In this document: piece by piece, positions 2,209-35,842 of the stretch
Layout of the letters: every line of letters starts with the position of its first letter
How positions within the stretch are numbered: the first letter of the stretch is position 1
Source: Hyphomicrobiales bacterium
Lineage (GTDB): Bacteria > Pseudomonadota > Alphaproteobacteria > Rhizobiales > Rhizobiaceae
Direction: 5' to 3'
DNA length: 60,108 bases
NCBI GenBank assembly: GCA_900473175.1
Contig: UCKM01000027.1
Span: forward strand, 1-60,108
Position numbers and translations under genes: made by a program
Notes under the pieces: generated by a model
Seen by the model: the letters and a program-made list of their open reading frames with translations, nothing else
Databases searched by the model: none
Told to the model about the DNA's origin: nothing

Positions 2209-2336
2209 CCGCTTCGAAGGATTCGACGATCACATCGACTTCTCTTTGTGACTCGATCTACTCGCCATCCACCAATTCCAGAAAGAAATTGGCTCCGGCC
2301 GTTCACCAAAGTATCCAAATTTGTGAGGATTTCGCG

Positions 2337-3431: not shown

Positions 3432-4150
3432 ACGTACTCGTCGTTGATGTGGGTGGCACCAACGTAAAAATACTCGCCACCGGACAGGACGAACCCCGGA
3501 AGTTTCCGTCCGGGCCATCGTTGACCGCGACCACGATGGTTCAGGGAGTCAAGGATCTGGCCGGGAACTGGAAATATGAAGCTGTCGCGATCGGCTATCC
3601 CGGTCCAGTCCTCCACAACTGGCCTGTAGCCGACCCGCACAAACTCGCTCCGGGCTGGATTGGGTCTGACTATCAAAAGGCGTTCGGGTTGCCGGTCAAA
3701 ATCGCTAACGACGCGGCCATGCAAACGCTGGGAAGCTATGACGGCGGCAAAATGCTTTTCTTGGGTTTGGGAACGCGCCTTGGTACGACGCTCATCGTAG
3801 ATGGGGTCGTCGAACCCATGGAGCTCAGTCATCTTCCTTACAAGGATGCCACCTACGAGGACTACGTGGGCAACCGGGCCTTGGACAAGATGGGCAAGAA
3901 GAAGTGGCGGAAGAACGTTGCAGACGTGGTTGAACGCCTGGTCGCCGCACTCCTGCCCGACGACGTCGTGATCGGGGGAGGCAACGTCAAGAAACTGGAC
4001 GAGCTGCCTGCCGGATGCCGGGCGGGAGACAACGCAAATGCATTGTCGGCGGTTTTCGACTTTGGAAGCCCGCGGCGGAACGCAAGTCCCGCCCGGAAGA
4101 GAAGTAGCCCTCTCGAAAGCGCGAGATTCCAGAAGGGAATTCGAGTATGA
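3428..4150 (+). CDS. ppgK: ROK-type polyphosphate glucokinase, probably frameshifted at the C-terminus
   Basis: A 240-codon ROK-family sugar kinase of the short polyphosphate/ATP glucokinase type. It starts with the phosphate loop DVGGTNVK (residues 7-14) and carries VAIGYPGPV and [15 protein letters not shown]. It would phosphorylate glucose to glucose 6-phosphate, feeding pgi and zwf downstream. Up to GDNANA (near 4040) the sequence follows the family. After that, the family ending [10 protein letters not shown] is found in the next frame and closes at a TAG at 4105-4107. One T appears to be missing near 4043, which replaces the last residues by an unrelated tail that runs on to overlap the pgi start. 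Fifteen or so C-terminal residues are affected; activity may or may not survive. Confidence 0.82.
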
Positions 4151-5787: not shown

Positions 5788-5872
5788 AGGCAGTCGCTAA
5801 CTGTTCTAAACAAAAATCTGCGGCTTGTTGACGGCATCGATTTTGACCAACCAACTCAGCGAGGAACGTGTC

Positions 5873-6892
5873 ATGCAGCTCGGAATGATCGGACTTGGCC
5901 GGATGGGCGCGAATATGGCGCGCCGGCTGCTCAAGAATGGCCATCAATGCGTTGTGTTCGACCGGTCGCCGCAGGCCGTCCAGGCGCTGATTCAGGAAAA
6001 GGCGGACGGTGCCGGCGCGCTCGCGGACCTGGTGAAAAAGCTCACCAAACCGCGGGCAGTCTGGCTGATGGTGCCAGCGGCCGTGGTCGACAAGACGATT
6101 GCCGATCTCGTGCCGCATCTGGAGGCCGGCGACACACTGATCGACGGCGGCAATTCCTACTACGTGGATGATATACGGCGAGCGAAGGACCTCGCCGCGA
6201 ATAGCATCGATTACATTGACGTTGGCACCAGCGGTGGCGTCTGGGGCCTTGAACGCGGCTACTGCATGATGATCGGCGGGCCGCAAGCCGCAGTCGAACA
6301 CCTCGATCCCATCTTCAAAACGCTGGCGCCGGGCTTGGGCGGAATTGTCCGCACGCCGGGACGCGAGAATCTCATCGGCACTGCCGAGATGGGCTATCTG
6401 CATTGCGGACCGAGCGGCGCCGGCCACTTCGTCAAGATGGTCCACAACGGCATCGAATACGGGCTCATGGCTGCGTATGCTGAGGGCCTGAGCATTCTGC
6501 GCGGTGCAGATGTCGGCACGAAGCAGAACGAAATTGACGCAGAGACGACGCCGCTACGCGATCCCGAACTTTATCAGTACAACCTCAATCTCCCTGATAT
6601 TGCCGAGCTTTGGCGACGCGGCAGCGTGGTCGCCTCCTGGCTTCTGGACCTCACGGCGGCCGCGCTTGTCGAGGACCCCGCGCTCGCCAAGTTTACTGGG
6701 CGGGTTTCGGATTCGGGGGAAGGGCGGTGGACCATCAAGGCCGCGATAGACGAAGCCATACCCGCGCCCGTCCTTTCCACGGCTCTCTACGAACGCTTCA
6801 GCTCGCGCGGAGATGCAGACTTCCAGAACAAGCTTATGTCGGCGATGCGCTATGAATTCGGCGGCCATCTGGAAAAGACGACCGGCAAGTGA
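5873..6892 (+). CDS. gnd: 6-Phosphogluconate dehydrogenase, decarboxylating (short GndA type)
   Basis: A 339-residue enzyme of the short type (about 300-340 residues, often NAD-linked). It oxidises and decarboxylates 6-phosphogluconate to ribulose 5-phosphate. The nucleotide-binding glycines are in MIGLGRMG near the N-terminus; [21 protein letters not shown] and [19 protein letters not shown] are the substrate and catalytic blocks. The open frame extends to a TTG at 5825, but the ATG at 5873 has GAGGAA 7 bases upstream and starts directly at the Rossmann fold. It follows pgi by 85 bases and precedes zwf by 22, in metabolic company with both. Confidence 0.94.
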
Positions 6893-6914
6893 TGGATCCC
6901 GAGAGGAGACCACA

Positions 6915-8312
6915 ATGAGCGAGCCCCAATCAGACGCCCTGGTTTTTTTCGGCGCCACCGGAGACCTGGCGTACAAGAAGATTTTCCCGGCGCTGCAGGC
7001 AATGCTGAAGCGAGGCCATCTCGACGTGCCGGTGATCGGCGTGGCCAGCGCCGGCTGGAGCCTCGACCAGTTTCGTGATCGGGCGCAGGACAGCCTTGAA
7101 AAACACGGCGACCTGGACCCCTCTGCCTTCAAGAAGCTGGCCGCGCTCCTGCGCTACGTTGACGGGGACTACGGCGATCCCGCGACCTTCCGCGCGCTCC
7201 GCAGGGAACTCGCAAATGCACAGCGCCCCGCCCACTATCTGGCAATCCCGCCTGCCCTGTTCGGCATGGTCGTCGAGCAGCTGGCGAAGGCGGAATGCAC
7301 CAACGGCGCTAGCGTGATCGTCGAAAAGCCTTTCGGGCATGATCTCAAGTCAGCCCGCGAACTGAATACAATCCTGCTCGGGACCTTCGACGAGAAGCGG
7401 ATATTTCGCATCGACCACTATCTCGGCAAAGGTCCAGTGCACAAAATGCTCTACTTCCGCTTTGCAAACGCCTTCCTTGAACCAATTTGGAACCGCAACC
7501 ATGTTGAGAGCGTACAGATCACGATGGCGGAGGATTTTGGAATCCAGGGCCGTGGCGCGTTCTACGACGCAACGGGCACCACCCGCGACGTGGTCCAGAA
7601 CCATCTGTTTCAGGTGCTGACCAATTTGACCATGGAGCCGCCGGTCAGGACCGACAGCGAATCGATCCGCGACGAAAAGGTCAAGGTGCTCAAGGCGATC
7701 CCCACACTCGATGAGAAGAGCATTCTCCGGGGGCAGTTTCGCGGATACCGAAACGAGCCCGATGTCGCACCGAACTCGACGGTTGAAACGTTCGCTGCGC
7801 TGCGGCTGAGCATTAATTCCTGGCGCTGGCAGGGAGTGCCGTTCTACATCCGCGCCGGAAAATGCCTGCCGGTTACATGTACCGAAGTATTCGTCCGGTT
7901 GCGCCGCCCACCCACCGTGTACAAGGCAACCAACGACGTGCCGAACCATGTGCGGTTTCGGATCAGCCCGGATGTCACGATTGCGATCGGCATGATGGTA
8001 TTGTCTCCAGCCTATGATTTTGTCGGGCTTCCGGCCGAACTGGTTGCGAGCCGAAATCCCCGAACCGGCGAGATGGATGCCTATGAGCGGGTGCTGGGGG
8101 ACGCGATGCATGGCGATGCGACGCTCTTCGCGCGCGAGGACTATGTCGAGGAGGCGTGGCGAATTGTCGATCCGGTGCTGGCAGCAAACACGCCGGTCTA
8201 TGAATACGACGCCGGCACCTGGGGCCCCCCCGAGGTCCACGCTCTCCTGCCCCCAGGAGACTGGCACAATCCAACTGAGGCAGATGCGGTTCCGGAACGG
8301 ATCAAAACCTGA
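6915..8312 (+). CDS. zwf: Glucose-6-phosphate 1-dehydrogenase
   Basis: A 465-residue enzyme giving 6-phosphogluconolactone and reduced cofactor, the entry step of the oxidative pentose phosphate and Entner-Doudoroff routes. The nucleotide-binding GATGDLA is at residues 13-19, EKPFGHD at 137-143, and the active-site RIDHYLGK at 165-172. The start ATG at 6915 follows GAGAGGAG. An upstream in-frame extension to 6813 overlaps gnd and has no family residues. The stop overlaps the start of a broken lactonase gene (TGATG at 8310-8314), so a pgl gene was once coupled to it. Confidence 0.95.
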
Positions 8313-8575
8313 TGCGGATCGAAATACTCGCGGACGCCGACCAAGTGGCCCGTCGCGCCCATACCGGCCCGTCGAGTGCGCCAGAACCGGGCCCTGATTC
8401 TTGCCGACCGCGCGGCGGCAGGATCGCTAGGTGCGAACTGAGATTGGACAGGAATCCGGCAAATCGCTGGGGACCTCGTCCAGACATATCTGGCCGCCGA
8501 GTTGAGCCAGGCAGGTCGACATCTCGGTCGCCTGAGTAAAATGGCTGGAAACGTACGCAGCGAAAGGCAACTCAT
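8312..8575 (+). pseudogene. pgl: 6-phosphogluconolactonase remnant
   Basis: The ATG overlapping the zwf stop opens the frame [16 protein letters not shown], which matches the usual start of rhizobial 6-phosphogluconolactonases. After about 16 codons the similarity is lost and no SGG substrate loop or later motif is found before tkt begins at 8587. I infer that a pgl gene in the usual zwf-pgl order was internally deleted, leaving the first codons and some unidentified filler. The lactone would then have to be opened spontaneously or by a chromosomal enzyme. Confidence 0.6.
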
Positions 8576-8586
8576 AGGTGAGGCAC

Positions 8587-10644
8587 ATGACCAACGAGCA
8601 AATGGATCTGCTATCGATCAATACTATTCGCACGCTATCGATGGACGCAGTGCAGGCCGCCAATTCCGGCCATCCCGGCACGCCAATGGCGCTCGCCCCA
8701 TTGGTTTACACTCTCTGGAATCGGGTGATGCGTTTTGATCCGAAGGATCCAGTCTGGCCCAACCGCGACCGTTTCGTGCTTTCCAACGGTCATGCCTCAA
8801 TGCTTCTTTGGTCGGCGCTTCACCTTGCCGGTGTTCAGGCCGTCAACGCCGACTATGAGAAGTTGGGACGACCGGCAGTGACGCTCGATGACATTCGCCG
8901 GTTCCGTCAATTCGGCAGCAAGGCACCAGGGCATCCAGAGTACCACCTGGTCTCGGGCGTCGAGGCCACTACCGGACCACTGGGACAGGGAATTGCCACC
9001 AGCGTCGGCATGGCCATTGCCCGTCGCTGGCTTGCCGGCCGATACAACCAGCCGGGATACGAAATTTTCGACTATGACGTCTACGCAGTGTGCGGCGACG
9101 GCTGCCTGATGGAGGGCGTCGGGTCGGAAGCCGCGTCGCTTGCCGGCCATCTTGGTCTGGAAAATCTGTGTTGGGTCTACGACAACAACCACATCACCAT
9201 CGAAGGAAGCACCAGCATCGCTTTTACAGAAGACGTCGCGGTCAGGTTCCTCGGTTATCGATGGAACGTCCTGCGCGTCGGCGACGCCAACGATGTCGAT
9301 CGCATCGAGAATGCGCTGCAGACGTTCCGACAGACGAAGGGTCGCCCTACGCTCATCATCCTCGATAGCCATATCGGCTACGGTTCACCGAACCGTCAGG
9401 ACACCGCCGCAGCGCACGGCGAGCCGCTCGGCGACGACGAGATCCGGCTTACCAAGCGGGGCTACGGCTGGCCCGAGGACGCGAAGTTTCTGGTCCCCGA
9501 CGGCGTCGTCGAACACTTCGCGGCGGGTGTAGGAGCGCGCGGAGGACAGATCCACCGCCAATGGGATGAACTCTTCTCCGCCTACAAATCGAAGCACTCT
9601 GGACTTGCTCTGGAAATCCAACAAATGCAGCGGCGCGATCTTCCCGCGGGTTGGGACCGCAACCTGCCGACCTTCGTCATCGATGAGAAAGGCATTGCCG
9701 GGCGCGACGCCTCGGGTCAGGTACTCAATGTTCTCGCGCAGAACATCCCCTGGTTTCTCGGCGGTTCAGCAGATTTGGGTCCCTCGAACAAAACCACCTT
9801 GAAGTATGACGGTGCCGGTGATCTCCAGGCCGATAGCCCGGGAGGGAAAAATCTCCATTTCGGGATCCGCGAAAACGCAATGGGGGCAATAGTGAACGGG
9901 CTGGCGCTCTCCAAATTGCGCCCGTTCGGCGCTACGTTCTTCATCTTCAGCGATTACGCGCGGCCCGCGATCCGGCTCTCTGCTTTGATGGAGCTGCCGA
10001 CGCTTTTCGTTTTGACGCACGATGCGATGGGCGACGGCGAGGATGGCCCGACGCATCAGCCCATCGAACAGCTCGCATCCCTGCGTGCGGTTCCCGGACT
10101 CACGTTGATTAGACCCGGCGACGCGAACGAAGTTGTCGAAGCCTATCGCTGCATCATGCAGCTCAAGCACCGGCCAGCGGTGCTCGTCCTGTCGCGACAG
10201 CCACTACCCACGCTCGACAGGGGAAGAAACGCACAAACGGCCGGTGTCGCATTCGGCGCTTACATCCTCGCGGATCCGCCGGAGGGCAAGCCGGAGGTAA
10301 TCCTCATCGCCAGCGGTAGCGAACTGAGTCTCGCTGCGCAGGCGCACGCCGCCCTCGTCGCTGAGGGCATCCGCTCTCGTGTCGTGTCGATGCCATCCTG
10401 GGATCTGTTTGAACGCCAATCGGAGGATTACCGCAACAGCGTGTTGCCGAAGGACGTCCGGGCCCGTGTGGCGATCGAGCAGGCTTCAACCTTTGGCTGG
10501 GAGCGCTACGTCGGCCGCGAAGGCCACACCATCGGGATGCACACCTTCGGTGCCTCCGCGCCCCTTAAGGCGTTGCAACAGGAGTTCGGATTCACCGTCG
10601 AAAATATCGTTGCGGCTGCCAAAGCACAGCTGCCCAGGAAGTAG
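8587..10644 (+). CDS. tkt: Transketolase
   Basis: A 685-residue thiamine-diphosphate enzyme of the non-oxidative pentose phosphate pathway. Visible blocks are the N-terminal ANSGHPGTPMALAP, SNGHASML, GPLGQGIATSVGMA, the thiamine diphosphate motif CGDGCLMEGVGSEA with VYDNNHITIEG, and in the C-terminal half THDAMGDGEDGPTHQPIEQLA. Length matches full-size transketolases (660-690). The ATG at 8587 follows AGGTGAGG; a GTG at 8578 is possible but lies inside that binding site. It closes the set tal-pgi-gnd-zwf-tkt, giving both branches of the pathway on one transcript. Confidence 0.95.
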   Translation: MTNEQMDLLSINTIRTLSMDAVQAANSGHPGTPMALAPLVYTLWNRVMRFDPKDPVWPNRDRFVLSNGHASMLLWSALHLAGVQAVNADYEKLGRPAVTLDDIRRFRQFGSKAPGHPEYHLVSGVEATTGPLGQGIATSVGMAIARRWLAGRYNQPGYEIFDYDVYAVCGDGCLMEGVGSEAASLAGHLGLENLCWVYDNNHITIEGSTSIAFTEDVAVRFLGYRWNVLRVGDANDVDRIENALQTFRQTKGRPTLIILDSHIGYGSPNRQDTAAAHGEPLGDDEIRLTKRGYGWPEDAKFLVPDGVVEHFAAGVGARGGQIHRQWDELFSAYKSKHSGLALEIQQMQRRDLPAGWDRNLPTFVIDEKGIAGRDASGQVLNVLAQNIPWFLGGSADLGPSNKTTLKYDGAGDLQADSPGGKNLHFGIRENAMGAIVNGLALSKLRPFGATFFIFSDYARPAIRLSALMELPTLFVLTHDAMGDGEDGPTHQPIEQLASLRAVPGLTLIRPGDANEVVEAYRCIMQLKHRPAVLVLSRQPLPTLDRGRNAQTAGVAFGAYILADPPEGKPEVILIASGSELSLAAQAHAALVAEGIRSRVVSMPSWDLFERQSEDYRNSVLPKDVRARVAIEQASTFGWERYVGREGHTIGMHTFGASAPLKALQQEFGFTVENIVAAAKAQLPRK

Positions 10645-10658
10645 GGCAAATTCGCATC

Positions 10659-12017
10659 ATGCGCGAAATGCAGTCAACCCACGCCAAAATCGACCGGCTG
10701 CCGACCGATGAAGACTGGGGACGGCTGCAGTTCACGACGTTGCTGTACTATCTGCACGATACAAACCCGGACAACGGTCTGGTTCGAGACAAAACGGAGT
10801 CCAATGCCCCGGCAAGCATCGCGGCTATCGGCATGGCGCTGGCCGCGCTTCCCGTCATTGTAGAACGTGGCGTCATTATCCGCGAATTCGCGGCGAAGAT
10901 AGCCCGCAAGCGACTGCGATACTTGATGGAATGCCCTCAAGGGCCAGAGCCGGATGCGTCGGGCTACAAAGGCTTTTTCTACCATTTTCTGGACATCGAG
11001 ACGGGTCGGCGGGTTTGGCAATGTGAGCTGTCGACCATTGATTCAGCCTTTCTGTTCGCAGGCGCCTTGACGGTTGCCACCTATTTCGATCGCGACACCG
11101 CCGATGAGGCGGAAATCCGCCACCTCGGCACGGCGCTCTATGAGCGGGCTGACTGGAACTGGGCCTGCGCTGGCGGTCTCTCGCTGACGCATGGCTGGCG
11201 CCCGGAAAGCGGGTTCATCCCGCATCGTTGGCAAGGCTATGACGAAGGGTTGCTGCTCTACATCCTCGGCCTTGGCTCGCCGACCCACCCGCTACACCCG
11301 CAGAGCTATGCCGCGTACACCGCAACCTACGACTGGAAGAAAATCTACGGCCGCGAGCTGCTTTATTCAGGTCCGCTTTTTACACATCAGCTGTCGCACA
11401 TGTGGGTGGACTTTCGCGACATCCGCGACGACTTCATGCGGCAGCACGACAGCAACTATTTCGAGAACAGCCGGCAGGCAACGTTCGTGCAGCAGGAATA
11501 TGCAATTCGCAACCCGATGAATTTTGTCGGCTATGGGCAACATTGTTGGGGATTCACCGCCTGCGACGGGCCCGGTTGGACCACCCGAGTCGTCAACGGC
11601 ATCGAGCGGCAGTCCTTCGATTACTACGCTCGCGGCGCTCCGTTCGGCCCGGACGACGGGACCGTCGCCCCATGGGTTGTCATTGCCTCGCTGCCGTTCG
11701 CACCGGAGATCGTCGTCCCGACGATCCACAACTTTGGCCGGATGAAACTCGGCATGACCCGGCTCTACGGGTTCAAACCGTCCTTCAATCCGTCATTTGC
11801 GGTGGAAGATAGTCCCACCGGCTTCTGGGTAAGCCCCTGTCACTTTGGCATCGACCAAGGGCCTGTCATTTTGATGATCGAAAACTATCGGACGGGCTTG
11901 CTCTGGAACATCATGCGCCGCTGTCCGCCGATAGTGGCTGGCTTGCGCCGGGCGGGGTTTTCGGGGGGTTGGCTGGAGGCTGGTGCGACGAAGCGCGGGA
12001 ATGCGACACATCGGTAA
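10659..12017 (+). CDS. Glucoamylase-like (PF10091 / GH144-type) glycoside hydrolase
   Basis: A 452-residue protein of the bacterial glucoamylase-like family, which includes endo-beta-1,2-glucanases (GH144). Family blocks seen: FYHFLDIETGRRVWQCELSTIDSA from about residue 107, HRWQGYDEGLLLYILGLGSPTHP, LFTHQLSHMWVDFR, GFTACDGPGW and the final AGLRRAGFSGGWL. No signal peptide is visible, so it probably acts on cytosolic oligosaccharides. It lies 14 bases after tkt in the same direction. Its glucose product would be a natural substrate for the glucokinase in this operon. The last 14 residues after SGGWL are not family-like and run into the SulP remnant. The exact glycosidic linkage cut cannot be read from the sequence. 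Confidence 0.82.
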   Translation: MREMQSTHAKIDRLPTDEDWGRLQFTTLLYYLHDTNPDNGLVRDKTESNAPASIAAIGMALAALPVIVERGVIIREFAAKIARKRLRYLMECPQGPEPDASGYKGFFYHFLDIETGRRVWQCELSTIDSAFLFAGALTVATYFDRDTADEAEIRHLGTALYERADWNWACAGGLSLTHGWRPESGFIPHRWQGYDEGLLLYILGLGSPTHPLHPQSYAAYTATYDWKKIYGRELLYSGPLFTHQLSHMWVDFRDIRDDFMRQHDSNYFENSRQATFVQQEYAIRNPMNFVGYGQHCWGFTACDGPGWTTRVVNGIERQSFDYYARGAPFGPDDGTVAPWVVIASLPFAPEIVVPTIHNFGRMKLGMTRLYGFKPSFNPSFAVEDSPTGFWVSPCHFGIDQGPVILMIENYRTGLLWNIMRRCPPIVAGLRRAGFSGGWLEAGATKRGNATHR

Positions 12018-23394: not shown

Positions 23395-24831
23395 ATGCTA
23401 GGATTCACTGCGCTTGAGCTGGCCCGAATTCAGTTTGGTTTTACGATTTCATTTCACATTATTTTTCCTGCAATCACGATCGGTCTTGCGAGCTATCTCG
23501 CCGTTCTTGAAGGTTTGTGGTTGTGGAAGCACGATGTCGCTCATCGCGACCTGTACCATTTTTGGTCGAAAATTTTCGCGGTTAACTTTGCAATGGGCGT
23601 CGTATCTGGCATTGTGATGGCCTACCAGTTCGGCACGAACTGGAGCTATTTTTCTGCATTCGCAGGAAGCATCACTGGCCCGTTGCTCACCTACGAAGTG
23701 CTAACCGCATTCTTCCTAGAGGCGGGTTTTCTCGGCGTCATGCTGTTCGGTTGGAACAAGGTAGGTCCAGGCCTGCATTGGTTCGCTACCATCATGGTGG
23801 CAATCGGAACGCTCGTGTCTGCAACTTGGATTCTCGCATCGAACAGCTGGATGCAGACACCGCAAGGATTCGAAATTATCAGTGGCCGCGTTGTTCCGGT
23901 GGACTGGCTGAAGGTTATTTTCAATCCCTCCTTTCCCTACAGATTGGCGCATATGACCGTGGCGGCATTTCTTGCCACCGCCCTTTTTGTCGGGGCATCC
24001 GGTGGGTGGCATCTGCTCCGCGGCAACGACATTCGTCCAATACGTATTATGCTGTCGATGGCCATGTGGATGCTGGTCCTCGTCACTCCGTTGCAAATCG
24101 CACTTGGCGACGCCCACGGGCTCAACACCCTCAAGTATCAACCTGCCAAGATTGCAGCGATGGAAGGCCATTGGGAAAACAAGCCGGGACAAAGCGTGCC
24201 ACTTATACTGTTCGGATGGCCGGACATGGCAGCTGAAAAGACGAGATTCGCGGTGGAAATTCCTCATCTCGGCAGCCTCATTCTTACCCATGAATGGAAT
24301 AGCCAGTTTCCCGGGCTTAAGGAGTTTGCCCCCGAGGATCGTCCAAATTCAACGGTGGTTTTCTGGACATTTCGCATCATGGTGGGTTTGGGAGTGCTCA
24401 TGCTCTTGTTGGGAGTATGGAGCTTGCTGTTACGGTATCGTCGAACCTTGTATCAATCGAAGCTATTTTTGCGCTTTGCCGTTGCTATGGGGCCCTCCGG
24501 ATTGATCGCCATACTCGCGGGATGGTTTACCACCGAGGTCGGCAGGCAACCTTGGGTGGTGTACGGCGTCATGCGAACAACAGATGCCGTATCAAACCAT
24601 TCGGCTCTGGCGCTGTCGACAACGCTCCTGGCCTTCATCGTGATCTACATCGCGGTTTTCGGCACCGGCGTGAGTTACATGCTGAGGCTGGTGGCCGCAG
24701 GGCCAGCAGACATTCCTAATTCTGAACGTCCTCGGCAAGGTTTGCATCAGACAAAGCGGCCGGCCAGGCCGCTGTCGGCCGCGCCTGACGACGTGGATCC
24801 AGAAATTGACCTGCCGGGAAGCGAGGACTGA
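23395..24831 (+). CDS. cioA: Cytochrome bd-type quinol oxidase subunit I (cyanide-insensitive, CioA type)
   Basis: A 478-residue, nine-helix subunit I of a bd-type oxidase, which reduces oxygen with quinol and does not pump protons. The N-terminal LELARIQFGFTISFHIIFPA holds the heme ligand histidine. GRQPWVVYGVMRTTDAVS is the conserved haem/oxygen block. The Q-loop segment is short, as in CioA rather than long-loop E. coli CydA, and no C-terminal insertion is seen. Its partner cioB starts 4 bases after the stop. The CioA/CydA distinction rests on loop length read by eye. Confidence 0.92.
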   Translation: MLGFTALELARIQFGFTISFHIIFPAITIGLASYLAVLEGLWLWKHDVAHRDLYHFWSKIFAVNFAMGVVSGIVMAYQFGTNWSYFSAFAGSITGPLLTYEVLTAFFLEAGFLGVMLFGWNKVGPGLHWFATIMVAIGTLVSATWILASNSWMQTPQGFEIISGRVVPVDWLKVIFNPSFPYRLAHMTVAAFLATALFVGASGGWHLLRGNDIRPIRIMLSMAMWMLVLVTPLQIALGDAHGLNTLKYQPAKIAAMEGHWENKPGQSVPLILFGWPDMAAEKTRFAVEIPHLGSLILTHEWNSQFPGLKEFAPEDRPNSTVVFWTFRIMVGLGVLMLLLGVWSLLLRYRRTLYQSKLFLRFAVAMGPSGLIAILAGWFTTEVGRQPWVVYGVMRTTDAVSNHSALALSTTLLAFIVIYIAVFGTGVSYMLRLVAAGPADIPNSERPRQGLHQTKRPARPLSAAPDDVDPEIDLPGSED

Positions 24832-24835
24832 TAGC

Positions 24836-25843
24836 ATGGGAATTGACCTACCGCTGATTTGGGCAATCATCATCGCATTCGGGTTGATGATGTATGTCAT
24901 CATGGATGGTTTCGATCTCGGCATCGGAATTCTCTTTCCGTTCGTGCCGGACCGCGATGATCGAGATACGATGGTCAACACCGTCGCCCCAGTATGGGAC
25001 GGCAATGAAACGTGGCTCGTCCTTGGCGGCGCGGCTTTGTTGGCGGCCTTTCCCCTGGCCTATTCGATCATCCTCAGTGCTTTGTATTTTCCCCTCTTCT
25101 TAATGCTCGGAGGCCTCATCTGGAGAGGTGTGGCATTCGAGTTTCGTTTTAAAGCGAATGACAGTCACAAGCCATTTTGGGACAAGGCCTTTGCCTGGGG
25201 ATCGTACATTGCCACTTTTTCGCAAGGCCTGGCTCTCGGCGCTTTCATCAATGGCTTTGAGATTGAAGACGCAGCATTTAGCGGAGGCGCACTCGATTGG
25301 CTCACCCCGTTCAGTCTCTTCACGGGGGTAGCGTTGGTTGTGGCCTATGCCCTGCTCGGTTGCACTTGGCTGATCATGAAAACTGAAGGCGAGTTGCAGC
25401 GGCGTATGATCAAGCTTGCACGGCCAACCACCTTGGCGGTGCTTGCAACCATCATCATCGTCAGTATTTGGACACCGCTGGTGCATGCAGATGTCGCAAA
25501 CCGCTGGTTCGCCTTACCGAATATTTTGTTTTTCGCCCCGGTGCCAGTGCTTGTGTTCGCCACGACATGGGCCATCCTTCGCCTGCTTAAGGGCGAGCCT
25601 CACGTCGCCCCATTTTTATTCACGTTGCTCCTACTCTTTTTAGGTTACAGCGGGCTCGCTATAAGCCTTTGGCCAAATATAGTGCCCCCTGCGATATCCA
25701 TTTGGGAAGCCGCAGGTCCGGCGGAGAGCATGGGGTTCACCCTTGTCGGCGCGCTCCTCGTGATACCCTGCATTCTAGCCTACACGGCGTGGTCGTATTA
25801 CGTTTTTCGAGGGAAGGTAAAGCCAGGCGAAGGCTATCACTGA
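24836..25843 (+). CDS. cioB: Cytochrome bd-type quinol oxidase subunit II (CioB type)
   Basis: A 335-residue membrane protein, subunit II of the bd-type oxidase. Typical blocks: IIAFGLMMYVIMDGFDLGIGILFPF, VWDGNETWLVLGGAALLAAFP, and GLIWRGVAFEFRFK. Eight or nine hydrophobic helices. The ATG at 24836 fits the family N-terminus; an in-frame ATG at 24806 lies inside cioA. Its stop overlaps the start of a small DUF2474-like gene (TGATG at 25841-25845), giving a three-gene operon. Confidence 0.93.
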   Translation: MGIDLPLIWAIIIAFGLMMYVIMDGFDLGIGILFPFVPDRDDRDTMVNTVAPVWDGNETWLVLGGAALLAAFPLAYSIILSALYFPLFLMLGGLIWRGVAFEFRFKANDSHKPFWDKAFAWGSYIATFSQGLALGAFINGFEIEDAAFSGGALDWLTPFSLFTGVALVVAYALLGCTWLIMKTEGELQRRMIKLARPTTLAVLATIIIVSIWTPLVHADVANRWFALPNILFFAPVPVLVFATTWAILRLLKGEPHVAPFLFTLLLLFLGYSGLAISLWPNIVPPAISIWEAAGPAESMGFTLVGALLVIPCILAYTAWSYYVFRGKVKPGEGYH

Positions 25844-29320: not shown

Positions 29321-30601
29321 ATGGGGGATCCCCATATGCATCCGCGGCCAGTCGGCCGCAGAATGACGCCGCAACGTGCCGAATTTCGCCGACTGGCACA
29401 GTCGGCTGAAATCGGAACGGTGACGCGCGGACAGCTTGCCGTGCTTGCGCAAAACCTGACCTGCACTGGAATTCTCAACGCGACGGAGAGCCATCTTCTT
29501 GTCACGCTGATCAACACCGCTCCGGCCGAGGCCTTCGACAAGTCCGGCCGTCCGATCATCTTTAAGTCCAATCAGCAGCTCGCTTTCGAAATCGGTCGTT
29601 CGGCCGGTCGCGTGAGCCGCATGCTTGCCAGCCTTTTCGACGCGGGCTTGGTCACCATGCAAGACAGCGGCAATTACAAGCGCTATCCCGTACGCAACGG
29701 CGATGGTGCGATTGTAGACGGTTGCGGCATCGACATGCGGATTCTGATCGCCCGCTACCGCGAGCTTGATCAGCTCGTGCGACAGGCCAGAGCCGAGAAA
29801 TCGGCCGCGAGCGCAGCGCTTCGCCGCTATCGCGGAGCGCTGCGCAATACCCGCTACGCCCTCGCAACCGTCGCGAGCCTGTCAGATCGCGCCCTGGCGC
29901 GCATCCATGGTCGCATGGAACGGGTCGTTGCTCTTGTTGGCGTTGCGACCAAGGCGCCGAGCGGGCTGCTACGCCGCGCAACGGCTCTCTTGGAGTGGCT
30001 TGTCGAGCGTCTGCTGCAGCTTCCGCGTCCGGCCGAAATGATGCCGGAAACAGAAAATTCGACATGCACGGATGTCGAAAACGGCACACACAAACAGAAT
30101 ACAAACCCCCATCCATTTGAAAATAGTAATCAGAAATGGCGTTCGGCTGACGCCGAACAACTCGGTTTGTTAGAGGCTGGCTTCGCCAGCCAAGGGGCTT
30201 ATGAAACAAGCCTGCGCCGCGGTTCGAGCCAAATCAACGGGCAACAGTGCCAGCCGCAGGCTGTGGTCGCATTGCAAGACGTTGTACGGGCGATACCGGC
30301 GCTTAAGACCTACGGCTTTACCCTGCCCCGCAGTTGGGCCGATCTGGCGCGGCTGGTACCGCAAATGTGCCGTCTGACGGGCATTTCCGAAGATGCGCGC
30401 CGCCGCGCCGTTGATCAGATGGGAGAGCAGCAGGCCGCCGTCGCAGTCGCTGTGACGCTGCAAAAATTTGACCGGCAAGAGGTCAAATCGCCGGGCGGCT
30501 ACTTGCGGGCCATGACGGACCGCGCCGCTACCGGCGAGCTTCACCTTGCCCGCTCGATTTTCGGGCTGGCAGCTCGTAGTTCCATGGAGGTACTGAATTG
30601 A
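29321..30601 (+). CDS. repC: Replication initiator RepC (stand-alone copy)
   Basis: A 426-residue RepC-type initiator. Conserved blocks include the N-terminal TPQRAEFRRLAQ, the winged-helix region with SNQQLAFEIGRSAGRVSRMLASLFDAGLV, a charged coiled middle and the C-terminal GISEDARRRAVDQMG, then KSPGGYLRAMTDRAATGELHL. It is not preceded by repA and repB, so it belongs to the repC-alone class. AAGGAGACGAGG is a strong binding site. Its stop overlaps the TTG start of the nuclease gene. A second repC is in the repABC operon at 37072; the two proteins are quite different, so they belong to different replicon lineages. Confidence 0.9.
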   Translation: MGDPHMHPRPVGRRMTPQRAEFRRLAQSAEIGTVTRGQLAVLAQNLTCTGILNATESHLLVTLINTAPAEAFDKSGRPIIFKSNQQLAFEIGRSAGRVSRMLASLFDAGLVTMQDSGNYKRYPVRNGDGAIVDGCGIDMRILIARYRELDQLVRQARAEKSAASAALRRYRGALRNTRYALATVASLSDRALARIHGRMERVVALVGVATKAPSGLLRRATALLEWLVERLLQLPRPAEMMPETENSTCTDVENGTHKQNTNPHPFENSNQKWRSADAEQLGLLEAGFASQGAYETSLRRGSSQINGQQCQPQAVVALQDVVRAIPALKTYGFTLPRSWADLARLVPQMCRLTGISEDARRRAVDQMGEQQAAVAVAVTLQKFDRQEVKSPGGYLRAMTDRAATGELHLARSIFGLAARSSMEVLN

Positions 30602-31110
30602 GATTTCGACTGATAATGGCGGCCGTGGCCGCAATCTGGTGCGTTGATGCGGTCGCCGAGCCGTCGGCGTGGTCAGGAACGGCGCGGGTTATCGACGGCG
30701 ATACGATCAGCATCCGGCAGCAGCGAATACGGATTGCGGCGATCGACGCATGCGAGCTCGATCAAACCGGCTTGAAGAGCGGCCAGACCTGGCGTTGTGG
30801 CGTTGTCGCGCGCAGTTACCTTCGGAAGATGATCGACGGGCAGCATGTCCGGTGCGACATCATCGACCAAGACCGTTACCGCCGTTTGGTCGGGCAGTGC
30901 TTCGTTGGCGATATCGACGTTGGCCTTGCCATGGTGAACGCAGGGCTTGCCGAGGCAATGCTTCGATATCTGCCAGCGTCCCACCCTATCAGCCTGGTCG
31001 AGTACGGCGAGGCCGAGAATCGGGCGCGTGACAACGGCTTGGGTATCTGGTCGGCCGAGATCGAAAGCCCGCATCTCTACCGCCGCGCCAAGTCTTCGCA
31101 GAAACCGTGA
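30598..31110 (+). CDS. Secreted thermonuclease-like (SNase) protein
   Basis: A 170-residue staphylococcal-nuclease-like protein. An N-terminal signal sequence (FRLIMAAVAAIWCVDAVAEP) comes first, then the SNase fold: ARVIDGDTISI, RIRIAAIDACELDQ, and the Arg-containing IIDQDRYRRLVGQCF. A Glu that corresponds to the catalytic Glu of SNase is in ASHPISLVEYGEAENRARDNGLGIW. The likely start is the TTG at 30598 that overlaps the repC stop (TTGA); ATG 30616 would cut into the signal. Such nucleases are standard companions of rhizobial plasmid backbones; their role is unclear. Confidence 0.87.
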   Translation: MRFRLIMAAVAAIWCVDAVAEPSAWSGTARVIDGDTISIRQQRIRIAAIDACELDQTGLKSGQTWRCGVVARSYLRKMIDGQHVRCDIIDQDRYRRLVGQCFVGDIDVGLAMVNAGLAEAMLRYLPASHPISLVEYGEAENRARDNGLGIWSAEIESPHLYRRAKSSQKP

Positions 31111-31510
31111 TCTGATATAGCCAAATCGGTGCAGTCGTTTGGCAAATGACGTGAGCCATATTGCTTCACAATATCGGCCAAAAACCCGGCATTTGTCGTT
31201 GATCGACCTCATTTAATGACTAATATAGGTCCGTTTCCTGTGGTTACAGGTCGACATCGAACAGGGGGAATGTTGCCAAATACGTTCATCCATCACCCCT
31301 CAAAGGCGGTTGCTTTTGACGCTCGTTCGCACGTCGACGCGGTTTACGCAAAGCCGGCTGTCACAAAAATTTCCCCGCCTTCGGCTTCCTCGCGCATCAA
31401 ATTTTTGCACCCCCCGGCTTCCTCCGCTCACGCTTCGGCCTTCGGTGCGCACCGCTTTTCCGCCGTGCCATGTGAACGATCATCGCAACCACCAAAGAGG
31501 AGTGACTAAA
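31111..31510. other. Intergenic leader before the DUF736 gene
   Basis: 400 bases without a recognised gene. The stretch 31370-31480 is rich in CCTTCGG/CGGCTTCC motifs able to fold, as is usual for leaders of DUF736 genes in rhizobial plasmids. AGAGGAGTGAC is the binding site of the gene at 31511. Confidence 0.4.
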
Positions 31511-31843
31511 ATGACCGCAACCAACTACATCCAGTTCGACGCAGACGACCTCGACACCGCCAAGGGCAAGGGCCTCATCTCTACCATCGACCGCGACCTG
31601 GACATCAACGTCGTCCCGTTCAGCTCGGATAACGAGAAAGCCCCGACGCACCGCGTCTATGCCAAGTCACCGCGCGGCCACGACATCGAGGTCGGCGGCG
31701 TCTGGAAGAAGAAGAACGCGGAGGGCAAGCCCTACTACACGCTCTCGATCAAACGCCTCGGTTTCAATGCCAATCTCGGCCGTTTCCCCGGCCAGGACGA
31801 CCCGACACTGCAGGCGATCATCGAATGGGAACCCCGCGATTGA
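31511..31843 (+). CDS. DUF736-type protein
   Basis: A 110-residue protein. The C-terminal half has the DUF736 pattern: APTHRVYAKSPRGHDIEVGGVWKK, then YYTLSIKRLGFNANLGRFPGQDD. DUF736 proteins are small beta-rich proteins of unknown role, found almost only on alphaproteobacterial plasmids and integrative elements. A strong hairpin follows the stop. Start ATG 31511 is supported by AGAGGAG 7 bases upstream. Confidence 0.87.
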   Translation: MTATNYIQFDADDLDTAKGKGLISTIDRDLDINVVPFSSDNEKAPTHRVYAKSPRGHDIEVGGVWKKKNAEGKPYYTLSIKRLGFNANLGRFPGQDDPTLQAIIEWEPRD

Positions 31844-31852
31844 TCGCGGCAA

Positions 31853-31877
31853 AGCGCCCGGCGAACAGCCGGGCGCT
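31853..31877 (+). terminator. Strong GC hairpin after DUF736 gene
   Basis: A 10-base perfect stem, AGCGCCCGGC / GCCGGGCGCT, around GAACA. No T-tract follows, so it may stabilise the 3' end or act with Rho rather than as a classic terminator. Confidence 0.5.
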
Positions 31878-31963
31878 CACCGCAGAACGGCCGGAAATCA
31901 CCGCAAAGTGCTCGATTTCCAGCACTTTTCCTGCTAGGGTGCGACGTAACTGGAGATTTGCCG

Positions 31964-32170
31964 ATGAACATCCATTCCCCCCGTCCGGACCGCTCCCCGG
32001 AGGCCATTGCAAAGCGCAAGAAGGCAACCGATCAGGCCCGCGCCGCCAATATCCGGCAGGGCTACACTTACGATCCGCTCCTCGAGGAGGCGACGGCAGC
32101 CTATGTCGCCGGCGACATTGGCCGCGACGAATACCGCGCCCGCGTCGTGCGACCCTCAAAGCACTCCTAA
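31964..32170 (+). CDS. VbhA-like antitoxin with degenerate inhibition motif
   Basis: A 68-residue protein of the VbhA antitoxin type, partner of the Fic protein encoded next. The family pattern is visible: RKKATDQARAANIRQGYTYD and the helix EEATAAYVAGDIGRDEYRARV. In VbhA-type antitoxins the inhibitory helix carries S-x-x-x-E-G, and the Glu blocks the ATP site of the Fic protein by binding the second Arg of the Fic motif. Here the Ser is Ala28 and the Glu is Gln32, so the key contact is missing. The ATG at 31964 follows TGGAG. A strong terminator separates it from fic. Confidence 0.78.
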   Translation: MNIHSPRPDRSPEAIAKRKKATDQARAANIRQGYTYDPLLEEATAAYVAGDIGRDEYRARVVRPSKHS

Positions 32171-32195
32171 CCCCCTTCCCTCCCAGAGTGAAACA

Positions 32196-32223
32196 CCGCC
32201 TGCCCTCGTGCAGGCGGTTTTTT
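32196..32223 (+). terminator. Intrinsic terminator between antitoxin and fic
   Basis: Perfect 8-base stem CCGCCTGC / GCAGGCGG with a 6-base loop, directly followed by TTTTTT. It ends 13 bases before the fic start codon, so fic would be read only by readthrough of this terminator or from another promoter. Confidence 0.85.
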
Positions 32224-32235
32224 GTGAACTAGGCC

Positions 32236-33288
32236 ATGTCCGACGAGCGCGCCAAAGGATCATATCTCTATCCCAATACCTCCGACGATCCCGATCGGAT
32301 CGACGTGCTGCGCAACAAGTTCGGCATCCAGTCGAACTCGGAGCTGCGCACGGAGGAATATCGCGCGACGGCCTTTCGTATGGCGGAAATCGCAGAAGGC
32401 GACGGGCCGGGAGGCAATTTCGACAAGGAACATTTGAAGGCCATTCACGGCTATATTTTTCAGGACGTTTACGAGTGGGCCGGTCACACGCGCAACGAAA
32501 GCCCGATCGTTGACGGCGCCCAGGTCGAGCCGATCGGCGGGCTCGCCAAGGGCGGAACCTCTTTCCTGCACGGCTCTCGGATCGAGTTCGGTCTGGACGA
32601 GGCTTTGAAGCCGATCCGCGATCCCGACGTTCTTCGCGGTTCCACGCCCGAGCAATTCGCCGAGCGCGCGGGCCAGGTGTTGGCCGAGCTCAATTACGTG
32701 CATCCGTTTCGAGAAGGCAACGGACGCGCTCAGGAAGCGTTCATTGCGGAGCTGGGCCGCCACTACGGTCATGACGCCGATTTCACCGTCATCAGCAAGC
32801 CGCGAATGATCGAGGCGTCGATCGAGACCACGAACGACCCGTCCAGTCCGGCGATGAAGCATGTTATGGAGGACGCTACCAATGCGAGCCGCCAAGAGGC
32901 GCTTCGCGCAGCGTTTACCGATCTGGAACAGTGCGGCGAAAAGCCGTTTGAACACAATATCCGCACGGCGCGTCCGGGCGAAGAAATCACCGGCCAGGTT
33001 CTCGGGCATGACAATCGTGTCGCCAGCATCGTAACGGACGAGCGGATCGTTGCCGTCGATCGCGCCGACTTGCCCGAGCACTTGCCGGACGACGATGCGG
33101 AGATCTCATTCACCGCCCGATCCGACTTTTCCCGCCTGGGGCGCGAGCAGCAGGCCACCGCGGCGCAATCGCAGACCGAACAGGCCGAGCAGCCACAGCA
33201 GGATACCAGCGCCGAGATTAAGGCATATGCGGCCGAAATGGCAGCACGGCGAGAGCGTGAACGCGACGACGAAGATCGCGATCGATAG
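32236..33288 (+). CDS. Fic-domain protein (VbhT-like) with altered Fic motif
   Basis: A 350-residue protein with an N-terminal Fic domain. The core is HPFREGNGRAQE at residues 156-167. The catalytic His156 and the anion-binding loop are intact. The second arginine of the usual HPFxxGNGRxxR, which holds the ATP gamma-phosphate, is Glu167. Fic enzymes normally transfer AMP to target proteins. A small OB-fold-like region follows (ITGQVLGHDNRVASIVTDERIVAVD, from about residue 252), then a glutamine-rich linker and a tail of mixed charge ending RERERDDEDRDR. There is no BID secretion domain as in Bartonella VbhT. Binding site before ATG 32236 is weak (TAGG). Activity may be non-canonical. Confidence 0.85.
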   Translation: MSDERAKGSYLYPNTSDDPDRIDVLRNKFGIQSNSELRTEEYRATAFRMAEIAEGDGPGGNFDKEHLKAIHGYIFQDVYEWAGHTRNESPIVDGAQVEPIGGLAKGGTSFLHGSRIEFGLDEALKPIRDPDVLRGSTPEQFAERAGQVLAELNYVHPFREGNGRAQEAFIAELGRHYGHDADFTVISKPRMIEASIETTNDPSSPAMKHVMEDATNASRQEALRAAFTDLEQCGEKPFEHNIRTARPGEEITGQVLGHDNRVASIVTDERIVAVDRADLPEHLPDDDAEISFTARSDFSRLGREQQATAAQSQTEQAEQPQQDTSAEIKAYAAEMAARRERERDDEDRDR

Positions 33289-33514
33289 CCAGCTACACGC
33301 GGCAAGCTGCTCTTGTCGTCATCGAGCGGGCCGGCGTCCCCCATGTCTCGGCGCCGTCTCCATTCCGTTGGCTGATTTGACGGACAAGCTACGATAGCCC
33401 CTCCCCCATGCAACCGCTGTCGCGGTCCTCCTCTGTCGTTTCGGCCCTACGGGTGCTTGGGCTCGCTTCGGCTATCTCCGTTTTTTGCCGTCAACCAACG
33501 GAATGGAGACGGCC

Positions 33515-34411
33515 ATGCAGAGCATCAAGGACACCTACCAACGCATCACCGATACCATCGTCGAGCAGCTTGAAACCGGCACCAAGCCGTGGATACGCCC
33601 CTGGCGCGGCAACGTCCGCAGCTCACTTATCCCGCGCCGCGCGACCGGCGAAGCCTATCGCGGCATCAACGTCCTAATGCTGTGGATCTCCGGCCAGATG
33701 TTCGGCTACGAGGAAAACACGTGGATGACTTATCGGCAGGCGCAGGATCTAGGCGCACAAGTCCGAAAGGGCGAGAAAGGCACCCTCGTCGTCAAGTACG
33801 GCACATTCACACCAAAGGAGCGCGAAGACGACGAAGAACGATCGATCCCCTACCTGAAGGGATACACCGTCTTCAATGTCGAGCAGATCGAGAACCTGCC
33901 CGACCGGTTTTTCAGCCCGATCGAAGAGACGCCGGCGACAGCGGTTCCGCATCTTGAAACCGTCGAGACGTTCGTAAATCGCACAGGTGCGAAAGTCGCT
34001 TACGGCGGCACGCAAGCCTGCTATCGCCCGACCAGAGACGACATTCTCATGCCGGACCGGCAGCGCTTTGTCAGCGAGGTTCACCTATATTCGACCCTGC
34101 TTCACGAAATGTCGCACTGGTCGGGTGCAAAGCACCGCCTGGACCGCGACATGAGCGGCAGATTCGGCAGCGAAAGCTATGCCGTCGAAGAGCTCATCGC
34201 GGAGCTGGCAGCTTCGTTTCTCTGCGCGGATCTTGGCGTGGCCCATGACCCGCGCGACAACACCGCAGCTTATTTGGCGAATTGGCTTGCCGTCTTGAAA
34301 AATGACAAGCGCGCAATCATCACGGCCGCTGCCAAGGCACAGGTTACCGCCGACTACCTCCACGAATTAGCGCTGTCGAATGGCAGGGAGGTCGCGCTTG
34401 CGCTGCCATAA
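33515..34411 (+). CDS. ArdC-like antirestriction / ssDNA-binding zincin
   Basis: A 298-residue protein with two parts. The N-terminal ArdC-type ssDNA-binding region (YQRITDTIVEQLETGTKPW, then GEAYRGINVLMLW and WMTYRQAQDLGAQVRKGEKGT) is followed by a zinc-peptidase-like domain with HEMSH at residues 197-201 and a downstream glutamate in EELIAELAASFLC. ArdC proteins protect incoming plasmid DNA from restriction. Start ATG 33515 has GGAGA upstream; an ATG at 33503 is possible. It is commonly found on conjugative plasmids, yet no transfer genes are in this window. Confidence 0.88.
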   Translation: MQSIKDTYQRITDTIVEQLETGTKPWIRPWRGNVRSSLIPRRATGEAYRGINVLMLWISGQMFGYEENTWMTYRQAQDLGAQVRKGEKGTLVVKYGTFTPKEREDDEERSIPYLKGYTVFNVEQIENLPDRFFSPIEETPATAVPHLETVETFVNRTGAKVAYGGTQACYRPTRDDILMPDRQRFVSEVHLYSTLLHEMSHWSGAKHRLDRDMSGRFGSESYAVEELIAELAASFLCADLGVAHDPRDNTAAYLANWLAVLKNDKRAIITAAAKAQVTADYLHELALSNGREVALALP

Positions 34412-34618: not shown

Positions 34619-35842
34619 ATGCCAATGAACAGCACCGAAGCACTGAAAGCGCGGCAGTCAGTCCAGCCGGCGATTGACGAAACGATCTGGGCGGATTCTC
34701 AAGCCCTTGGATCGCAGCTTCAGCTACTCCGGGAACGCTTGTTTCCACCTGAGGCTGAAAAGCAGTTGCGGCGTTTTTCGAGCGCAGAAGTCGCAAAGCT
34801 CATTGGCGTGACTGAAAGTTATGTGCGCCATTTGGCGCTTGCAGAAGATGGCCCGGTTCCCGAGAAAGCTCCGAATGGAAAACGGGCTTACACACTCGAC
34901 CAGATTCATGCGCTAAGGCGCCATCTCACCAAGGGCAAGACATCTTACGTACCAACCCGAACCACGGGCGAACGCTTGCAGATCATAGCGGTTACAAACT
35001 TCAAAGGCGGGTCCGGTAAAACCACCAGTGCAGCACACCTCGCGCAGTACTTTGCATTGCGCGGATATCGTGTTTTAGCGGTGGACCTTGATCCGCAGGC
35101 GTCGATGTCGGCGCTATACGGATATCAGCCTGAATTTGACGTTGGAGACAACGGCACACTCTATGGTGCGATACGCTACGACGATGAGCGGCGTCCACTA
35201 AGCGAGATAATTCGGCGCACATATTTTGCTGGTCTTGATCTTGTGCCTGGCAATCTCGAACTCCATGAGTTTGAGCACGACACCCCGCGCGTGTTGTCCG
35301 ACAGAAACCGAGATCCGGATGGGCTCTTTTTCATGCGGGTGTCCAATGCGTTGGAAAGTGTGGGAGATAACTACGACGTTGTCGTTATAGACTGCCCACC
35401 TCAACTCGGGTTCCTCACAATGTCCGCACTCTGCGCTGCCACGTCCGTGTTAATCACGGTGCATCCGCAGATGCTGGACGTTGCTTCCATGAACCAGTTT
35501 CTCGCTATGACCTCCCAATTGCTATCGGTCGTTCGAGAGGCAGGCGGTAACTTGGAATACGACTGGATGAGATACCTCGTGACGCGGTACGAACCTCATG
35601 ACGGTCCACAAGCTCAAATAGTTGCATTCCTCCGCAATTTGTTCAGCGAGCGAGTTCTGACCTCCATGATGGTCAAATCGACGGCTGTATCGGACGCAGG
35701 ATTGTCCAAACAAACAATTTACGAAGCCGGCCGCGAAACAATGAACCGTCAAACCTATGATCGGGCCATTGAATCTATGGACAGCGTGAACGCCGAAATC
35801 GAGGGCCTTGTTAGACGAGCTTGGGGGAGGGCAGCAGCGTGA
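34619..35842 (+). CDS. repA: Plasmid partition ATPase RepA
   Basis: A 407-residue ParA-type ATPase of the repABC family that partitions the plasmid and represses its own operon. The N-terminal region has a helix-turn-helix (RRFSSAEVAKLIGVTESYVRHL). The deviant Walker A FKGGSGKTT spans about residues 128-136, with the switch motif VDLDPQASMS and Walker B VVVIDCPPQLG. ATG 34619 and ATG 34625 are both possible starts. A direct repeat TTTGCGTGAA occurs twice just upstream (34581-34590 and 34610-34619) and might be a RepA site. The stop overlaps the repB GTG start. Confidence 0.94.
   Translation: MPMNSTEALKARQSVQPAIDETIWADSQALGSQLQLLRERLFPPEAEKQLRRFSSAEVAKLIGVTESYVRHLALAEDGPVPEKAPNGKRAYTLDQIHALRRHLTKGKTSYVPTRTTGERLQIIAVTNFKGGSGKTTSAAHLAQYFALRGYRVLAVDLDPQASMSALYGYQPEFDVGDNGTLYGAIRYDDERRPLSEIIRRTYFAGLDLVPGNLELHEFEHDTPRVLSDRNRDPDGLFFMRVSNALESVGDNYDVVVIDCPPQLGFLTMSALCAATSVLITVHPQMLDVASMNQFLAMTSQLLSVVREAGGNLEYDWMRYLVTRYEPHDGPQAQIVAFLRNLFSERVLTSMMVKSTAVSDAGLSKQTIYEAGRETMNRQTYDRAIESMDSVNAEIEGLVRRAWGRAAA

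What the first reader, a model, noticed from the sequence alone, without database searches (positions are those of the whole stretch)
32236..33288. Fic motif lost its second arginine and the antitoxin lost the glutamate that pairs with it
Fic reads HPFREGNGRAQE with Glu167 at the place of the ATP-gamma-phosphate arginine. In the neighbouring VbhA-like protein the S-x-x-x-E-G motif is A-N-I-R-Q-G. In known VbhA/VbhT pairs that glutamate inhibits by binding that arginine. Both sides of one contact have changed together, suggesting a Fic subfamily with other chemistry (for example not ATP/AMP transfer) or other inhibition.
Basis: partly seen in the sequence, partly recalled or inferred. Interest (0 to 1): 0.75.

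Follow-up and report, generated by a model that had tools for sequence, protein, structure and literature searches.

The report
Fic and partner swapped key glutamate
On plasmids of soil rhizobia and acetic-acid bacteria, a toxin-like Fic enzyme carries the glutamate that normally sits in its small partner protein, and the partner has lost it, which makes these pairs a natural candidate for enzymes that remove AMP from proteins instead of adding it.

Summary
In detail: the Fic motif reads HPFREGNGRAQE (Glu167 at the second-arginine site, R2) and the adjacent VbhA-family protein reads ANIRQG where relatives read SxxxEG. It is not decay. In the 120 best-listed homologues R2 is Glu 116, Gln 3, Asp 1, Arg 0, and the other nucleotide-pocket residues are almost invariant. 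In gene pairs picked without a motif filter, Glu-type Fics have a Gln partner in 36 of 36; Arg-type Fics have a Glu or Asp partner in 61 of 61. The Glu/Gln Fics form one supported group, so only three independent contrasts exist: two agree, one ties, none opposes. A 2026 paper (PMC13327609) made the same substitution in Fic-1: the mutant lost toxicity and removed AMP from GyrB without its partner. Its main text notes at least 95 natural carriers, untested. Best explanation: the catalytic glutamate moved from partner to Fic, giving a partner-independent deAMPylase or related hydrolase. Unproven; an inverted, still inhibited transferase is the main rival. Not found in print by my searches: the partner's matching loss, the conserved plasmid context, and a terminator-like hairpin between the two genes.

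The parts
32236..33288 (+). Fic protein, 350 aa: N-terminal extension, FIC domain with Bep-like insert, small beta domain aligning to the part after the FIC domain of BepA, variable linker, charged tail
   Evidence: domain layout from the model of a relative, L094
32701..32736 (+). FIC motif HPFREGNGRAQE, with Glu167 (codon 32734-32736) at the R2 site
31964..32170 (+). VbhA-family partner, 68 aa from ATG (the ORF extends to a TTG at 31958)
32045..32062 (+). inhibitory-helix motif ANIRQG (SxxxEG in canonical partners); Gln codon 32057-32059
32195..32224 (+). terminator-like hairpin with T run between partner and fic
31511..31843 (+). DUF736 protein, conserved upstream neighbour (start inferred)
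33485..34411 (+). ArdC-like protein (ArdcN + MPTase-PolyVal), conserved downstream neighbour
30598..31110 (+). SNase-type thermonuclease, conserved neighbour
29321..30601 (+). RepC replication protein
34619..35842 (+). ParA/RepA-type partition ATPase

Best explanation
This is a class I Fic/VbhA pair in which the glutamate that in canonical pairs sits in the partner has been relocated into the FIC motif itself, replacing the arginine that binds the ATP gamma-phosphate. Shown: the paired sequence state, its conservation, the intact nucleotide pocket, purifying selection, and the conserved linkage. Inferred: the Fic is not an ATP-using AMP transferase toxin but a deAMPylase or related nucleotidyl-protein hydrolase that carries its own glutamate. 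Also inferred: the partner, now with Arg-Gln-Gly at the helix end, still docks but no longer supplies the catalytic acid. It would act instead as regulator, stabiliser or chaperone, made in excess because a terminator-like hairpin precedes fic. The target is unknown; GyrB/ParE is the first candidate by analogy with Fic-1.
For: R2 is Glu in 116, Gln in 3, Asp in 1 and Arg in 0 of the 120 listed homologues. His, Phe110, Asn153, Glu/Asp160, G163, R164 and Ser195 are nearly invariant in 118 of them, unlike the G2=Glu Beps, whose ATP-binding residues are under-represented (PMC8401265 section 12). Partner Glu is replaced by Gln in 24 of 24, 10 of 10 and 2 of 2 (L222, L223). Supported group in the tree. 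Fic dN/dS 0.06-0.27 in the 13 comparisons with a finite value. Published: Fic-1 R146E, the same site, deAMPylates GyrB without AntF and is not toxic; the authors conclude that a Glu from either protein suffices. The joined model of a relative puts the partner helix where FICD and SoFic carry their own inhibitory helix, with the partner Gln at the place of FICD E234 and SoFic E73 if the alignment offset holds.
Against: I found no activity test on this group. The partner's helix end is strongly conserved and a hairpin precedes fic, which looks more like control of a still dangerous enzyme than like a freed enzyme. R164 is invariant although R143 was dispensable for deAMPylation in Fic-1. One Gln-type pair (L110) has no glutamate on either side. 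PMC13327609 itself cites simulations that question a direct catalytic role of E234 in FICD.
Confidence: 0.48

Rival explanations
1. Inverted contact, still a toxin: the enzyme transfers a group from a donor that does not need a gamma-phosphate arginine, and the partner inhibits through Arg/Gln facing Glu167 instead of Glu facing Arg.
For: The partner is retained in 35 of 36 Glu-type loci. The residue before the Gln is Arg in 24 of 24 Glu-type pairs; in Arg-type pairs it is Ile, Leu, Met or Val in 57 of 61, Gln in 3 and His in 1, so a charge swap is possible. Nucleotide pocket intact. Terminator-like hairpin favouring partner excess.
Against: The same substitution in Fic-1 abolished its toxicity. 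No donor is indicated by the sequence.
Confidence: 0.27
2. Non-catalytic binding protein or decoy: the FIC fold is kept only for binding a target or the partner.
For: Loss of an ATP-binding arginine; 11 of the 60 listed plasmid rows match Fic in 2-3 pieces, which suggests broken and hence dispensable genes.
Against: The catalytic His and the other pocket residues are invariant or nearly so in 118 sequences, which a mere scaffold would not need.
Confidence: 0.13
3. Point decay of an ordinary toxin-antitoxin pair in this strain.
For: Single-residue changes on both sides of a known contact.
Against: None of the 120 listed homologues has Arg at R2; 36 of 36 partners of Glu-type Fics have Gln; purifying selection.
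Confidence: 0.02

Closest known systems
VbhT/VbhA of Bartonella schoenbuchensis (class I FicTA)
   Different: R2 is Arg147 and the partner has Glu24 (passages of PMC3667792); VbhT has a BID domain and no Bep-like hairpin (PMC5675462); here R2 is Glu and the partner has Gln
Fic-1/AntF of Pseudomonas bijieensis 2P24
   Same: Class I pair; its laboratory R146E mutant has the same R2 = Glu state as this natural Fic
   Different: Wild type has Arg146 and AntF Glu28; this family has neither, and has a beta domain after the FIC domain
Bep effectors of Bartonella (BepA, Bep1, BepC) and rhizobial FicT relatives A6X7M7 and B9K658
   Same: Best solved-structure matches; only single-residue gaps to BepC across the Bep-like insert. 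A close relative with the same Glu/Gln state lies on pAtS4a of Allorhizobium ampelinum (formerly A. vitis) S4, and may be B9K658 (not verified)
   Different: Many Beps keep R2 or have Glu at G2 rather than at R2 (PMC8401265); they carry BID domains for secretion
FICD and Enterococcus Fic deAMPylases
   Same: A glutamate near the FIC motif is linked to deAMPylation (PMC13327609 discussion; PMC6408439 seen only as abstract start in a listing)
   Different: There the glutamate lies on the inhibitory helix (recalled for Enterococcus Fic), not inside the FIC motif

Membership tests
Fic/DOC (Pfam PF02661) | FIC domain above the curated cut-off | tested here: met
   E 3e-13, 50.9 bits against 24
Class I FicTA module | Small separate partner with VbhA-type inhibitory helix next to fic | tested here: met
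   PF18495 50 bits against 25.9; VbhA match in 35 of 36 Glu-type loci
Class I FicTA module | (S/T)xxxE(G/N) motif in the partner | tested here: not met
   ANIRQG; Gln in 36 of 36 partners of Glu-type Fics
Canonical AMP-transferase Fic | HPFx(D/E)GNGRxxR with the second Arg | tested here: not met
   Glu167; no Arg in the 120 listed homologues
Canonical AMP-transferase Fic | AMP transfer from ATP, toxicity relieved by partner | not testable with these tools
   needs bench assays
Glu-dependent Fic deAMPylase | Catalytic His and a nearby Glu | tested here: inconclusive
   Both residues present: His156 118 of 118, Glu167 114 of 118; their distance was not measured, coordinates not available
Glu-dependent Fic deAMPylase | Removal of AMP from a modified protein | not testable with these tools
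   shown for Fic-1 with AntF and for its mutant (PMC13327609), not for this group
Bep effector | C-terminal BID domain | tested here: inconclusive
   Pfam finds only Fic above its cut-off in the 350 aa; structure matches cover the FIC and the following small domain; no BID-specific search was made

The most novel reading that the evidence does not exclude
A plasmid-borne antidote enzyme: a Fic that has taken over its partner's glutamate and become a dedicated deAMPylase. It would undo AMPylation by Fic toxins or Fic-based defences of other elements or of a recipient cell, kept next to the ArdC anti-restriction gene as an establishment or anti-defence module.
Probability: 0.25. Interest if true: 0.85.

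Novelty: new variant of a known kind. Interest (0 to 1): 0.6.

Why it matters
PMC13327609 left open whether natural Fics with glutamate at R2 de-modify proteins, and spoke of their inhibitory protein only as 'if any'. This group answers the second part: nearly all loci have a partner, and it has lost exactly the now redundant glutamate. It gives a natural test of how one residue, moved between two proteins, can turn a transferase into a hydrolase, and it points to a plasmid module that might protect cells from Fic toxins.

Tried and rejected
Point decay: rejected. Fusion of partner and Fic in one protein: none found with the partner profile among the 120 homologues. A strict rule of exactly one glutamate per pair: holds in the Glu-type pairs and in L108 (Gln in Fic, Glu in partner), fails in L110 (Gln and Gln). 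Statistical covariation with phylogeny: R2 = Glu against partner = Gln gives three contrasts (2 same, 0 other, 1 no difference); R2 = Arg against an acidic partner gives three (typically 1, 0, 2); R2 = Arg against Ser/Thr/Asn at the motif start gives three (mean 1.6, 0, 1.4); all too few for significance. A second origin of R2 = Glu (L123, grouping with an Arg-type row at support 88): no partner found next to it and no relative in the 6 other genomes of its family, so it adds nothing. Viral contigs: 48 relatives, top-ranked 31% and at most 37% identical; R2 is Arg in 47, one not read, so no Glu-type phage copy was seen. An A2 alignment of partner-only and Fic-only rows was misaligned by MAFFT and was not used. 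In VIA-align the Clostridium difficile row 4x2d_A (12 to 11) does not put the partner Gln at its named E35 by simple offset, so that row does not support the helix equivalence. Rfam: nothing at 31300-33600. Literature: searches; the string GNGRxxE is in no held paper, and no held paper has ardC, repABC and Fic together. Supplements were not available, so Fig. S10 of PMC13327609 was not seen.

Rows dropped before the pair counts: L002, L083, L085 and L125 as duplicates; 17 Fic loci with no partner found (one Glu, one Gln, one Leu, fourteen Arg). The Fic genes of L006, L012 and L120 are broken; their partners read ANIRQG but they are not in the pair tables. L210 and L211 repeat L087 and L088. 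L212-L217 (R2 Met or Leu; a partner was found in L212-L217, with Glu at the site) came after the tables and are not counted. Several Glu-type rows are near copies. The partner profile started from Glu-type partners and includes the motif columns; no motif filter was applied. The hairpin rows were chosen because they fit the hairpin, so the pair counts lean towards it.

Full report
What is there. The Fic gene at 32236-33288 and the VbhA-family gene ending at 32170 are intact and adjacent. The Fic motif is HPFREGNGRAQE, so Glu167 occupies the second-arginine (R2) site. The partner motif is ANIRQG. The best sequence relatives with solved structures are Bartonella Bep1, BepC and BepA, with VbhT lower in the list.

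Conservation. A search of 5.8 billion proteins listed the 120 best of 1184 Fic homologues (only the 7996 candidates sharing most words were scored). R2 is Glu in 116, Gln in 3, Asp in 1, Arg in none of the 120; a stricter pattern open to any residue at R2 read 117 of them with Glu 113, Gln 3, Asp 1. One search aligned the 118 whose motif is otherwise complete; its pattern admitted only Glu, Asp or Gln at R2, so the absence of Arg rests. In those 118, His156, Phe158, Gly161, Asn162, Gly163 and Arg164 are present in all, Glu/Asp160 in all, Asn153 in 117 with one gap, Phe110 in 113 (one Ser, four gaps) and Ser195 in 115 (one Val, two gaps). By PMC8401265 (sections 10 and 12 read, passages elsewhere) these positions serve catalysis, loop structure, magnesium, ribose and base contact. 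So one pocket residue changed and the rest was kept. The two left out (P0010, P0113) each depart at another motif residue and have Glu at R2. In the partner (window plus 56 homologues), Asn31 is in 57 of 57, Arg33 in 56, Gln34 in 54 and Gly35 in 56 (which counted columns 25-43; numbering from the TTG, subtract 2 for the ATG). The end of the helix is thus strongly conserved.

Pairs. Partners were sought next to 118 Fic loci of at least 60 bits, with an iterated profile that started from Glu-type partners and used no motif filter. Table: Fic R2 = Glu, partner Gln 24 of 24; R2 = Arg, partner Glu 60 and Asp 1 of 61; R2 = Leu, partner Glu 11 of 11; R2 = Gln, partner Glu 1 (L108) and Gln 1 (L110); Thr and Lys one each with Glu. 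Ten more plasmid loci with Glu in Fic gave Gln 10 of 10, down to Gluconobacter (AAQRRQG), and two later ones (L222, L223) 2 of 2. A second partner change goes with it: the residue before the Gln is Arg in 24 of 24 Glu-type pairs, but Ile, Leu, Met or Val in 57 of 61 Arg-type pairs (Gln 3, His 1).

Evolution. In a tree of 128 FIC domains with the R2 column left out, 37 Glu and 5 Gln rows form one group with SH-aLRT 98, next to one Arg-type row at 97 (near copies left out, midpoint root for drawing only). One further Glu row, L123, lies apart. Because of the single group only three independent contrasts exist for R2 = Glu against partner = Gln: two agree, one ties, none opposes. The association is clear as a property of the group but weak as repeated covariation. 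L108 against its relative L087 is the most telling contrast: the one has Gln in Fic and Glu in the partner, the other the reverse; the direction of change was not determined. L110 is the counter-example.

Selection. dN/dS of Fic is 0.10-0.24 between the window and nine relatives (a tenth was saturated) and 0.06-0.27 in the four close pairs completed before the script stopped. That speaks against decay. However, 11 of the 60 listed plasmid rows match in two or three pieces without an annotated gene, so the gene seems to break at times.

Context. In Glu-type loci VbhA is found in 35 of 36, DUF736 in 24, the ArdC-like gene in 24 and the thermonuclease in 23; in 75 Arg-type loci DUF736 is found in 5 and ArdC in 1 (many loci have only 1.5 kb flanks). 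Five rhizobial plasmid stretches show repC - thermonuclease - DUF736 - VbhA - Fic - ArdC-like metallopeptidase (some genes annotated only as hypothetical), followed by repA in the two that reach that far; a sixth has VbhA - Fic - metallopeptidase - repA behind a transposase. Six Acetobacteraceae plasmids have the VbhA-Fic core beside other genes (in one search the Fic is not annotated and was read). The window's own genome has one other Fic-family gene at the Pfam threshold, with the Doc-like motif HPFIDGNKLTGF, and no canonical class I Fic at that threshold.

Hairpin. Between the two genes lies a terminator-like hairpin, ACCGCCTGC-CCTCGT-GCAGGCGGT followed by T5 (the same scan expects 2.4 such sites by chance in the 1.9 kb and found 2 overlapping ones, so the single site proves nothing; MFE z-score -2.3). 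Its recurrence at the same place does: such a hairpin is found in 24 of 34 Glu-type and 2 of 2 Gln-type pairs, in 0 of 61 Arg-type, 0 of 12 Leu-type, 0 of 1 Thr and 0 of 1 Lys pairs, and in 5 of 1700 mononucleotide shuffles. It is missing in the six Acetobacteraceae pairs scanned and in L087, and fails the pattern in L104, L107 and L209. Seventeen distinct forms keep 97.8% of pairs with three two-sided changes (chosen rows). The promoter scan of the tool finds no sigma-70-like site in 31700-33600. I infer that fic is read through from upstream at reduced level and the partner is made in excess.

Literature. PMC13327609 (outline, sections 9, 10, 11 and passages) shows that Fic-1 R146E deAMPylates GyrB without AntF, that it is not toxic, and that at least 95 of 65,536 UniProt FIC/DOC proteins have this signature, none tested. 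It speaks of their inhibitory protein only as 'if any'. PMC8401265 proposes deAMPylation for Beps with Glu at G2, a different position, and names rhizobial FicT A6X7M7 and B9K658 as nearest to the Beps. PMC5675462 (section 10 and passages) describes FicT toxins as conjugation-linked secreted proteins. PMC3667792 (passages) shows the gamma-phosphate taking the place of the inhibitory glutamate and binding R2. I found no paper on the partner's Gln in the searches listed under Tried and rejected.

Conclusion. The finding is real and the joint change marks a group of plasmid-borne pairs. The published mutant makes partner-independent deAMPylation the most likely function, at about even odds; the conserved partner helix and the hairpin keep the inverted-inhibition toxin alive as a rival.

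Noticed in passing
window 32195-32224: Terminator-like hairpin between vbhA and fic, recurring in rhizobial Glu-type pairs and not found in the Arg- and Leu-type pairs scanned.
   Followed up: yes
L017, L020, L027, L040, L067, L073, L078, L126, L127, L129, L131, L134; also L212-L217: A separate set of alphaproteobacterial Fics has Leu (or Met) at R2, as in HPFREGNGRTQL; the partners found keep the Glu, and, where the first motif position is readable, it is not Ser/Thr, mostly Leu.
   Followed up: partly
L006, L012, L120; plasmid rows H3, H14, H15, H26, H39, H42, H43, H46, H47, H49, H57: Fic gene broken or matched in pieces; the partner ORF of L006, L012 and L120 is open and reads ANIRQG.
   Followed up: partly
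window 33247-33285: Charged Fic C-terminal tail (RRERERDDEDRDR) kept in many rhizobial members after a variable linker; a secretion signal is conceivable but untested.
   Followed up: no
window 2178-12017 and 23395-25843: The contig carries transaldolase, phosphoglucose isomerase, glucose-6-phosphate dehydrogenase, transketolase, a putative glucoamylase and cytochrome bd oxidase genes.
   Followed up: no
window 32236-33288: The Fic matches PADLOC candidate defence models PDC-S04 (E 9.8e-50).
   Followed up: no
G000:C33:29821-30057 (L001): Doc-like gene (motif HPFIDGNKLTGF) just downstream of a 76-aa ORF that looks like an AbrB-type antitoxin, by eye only.
   Followed up: no
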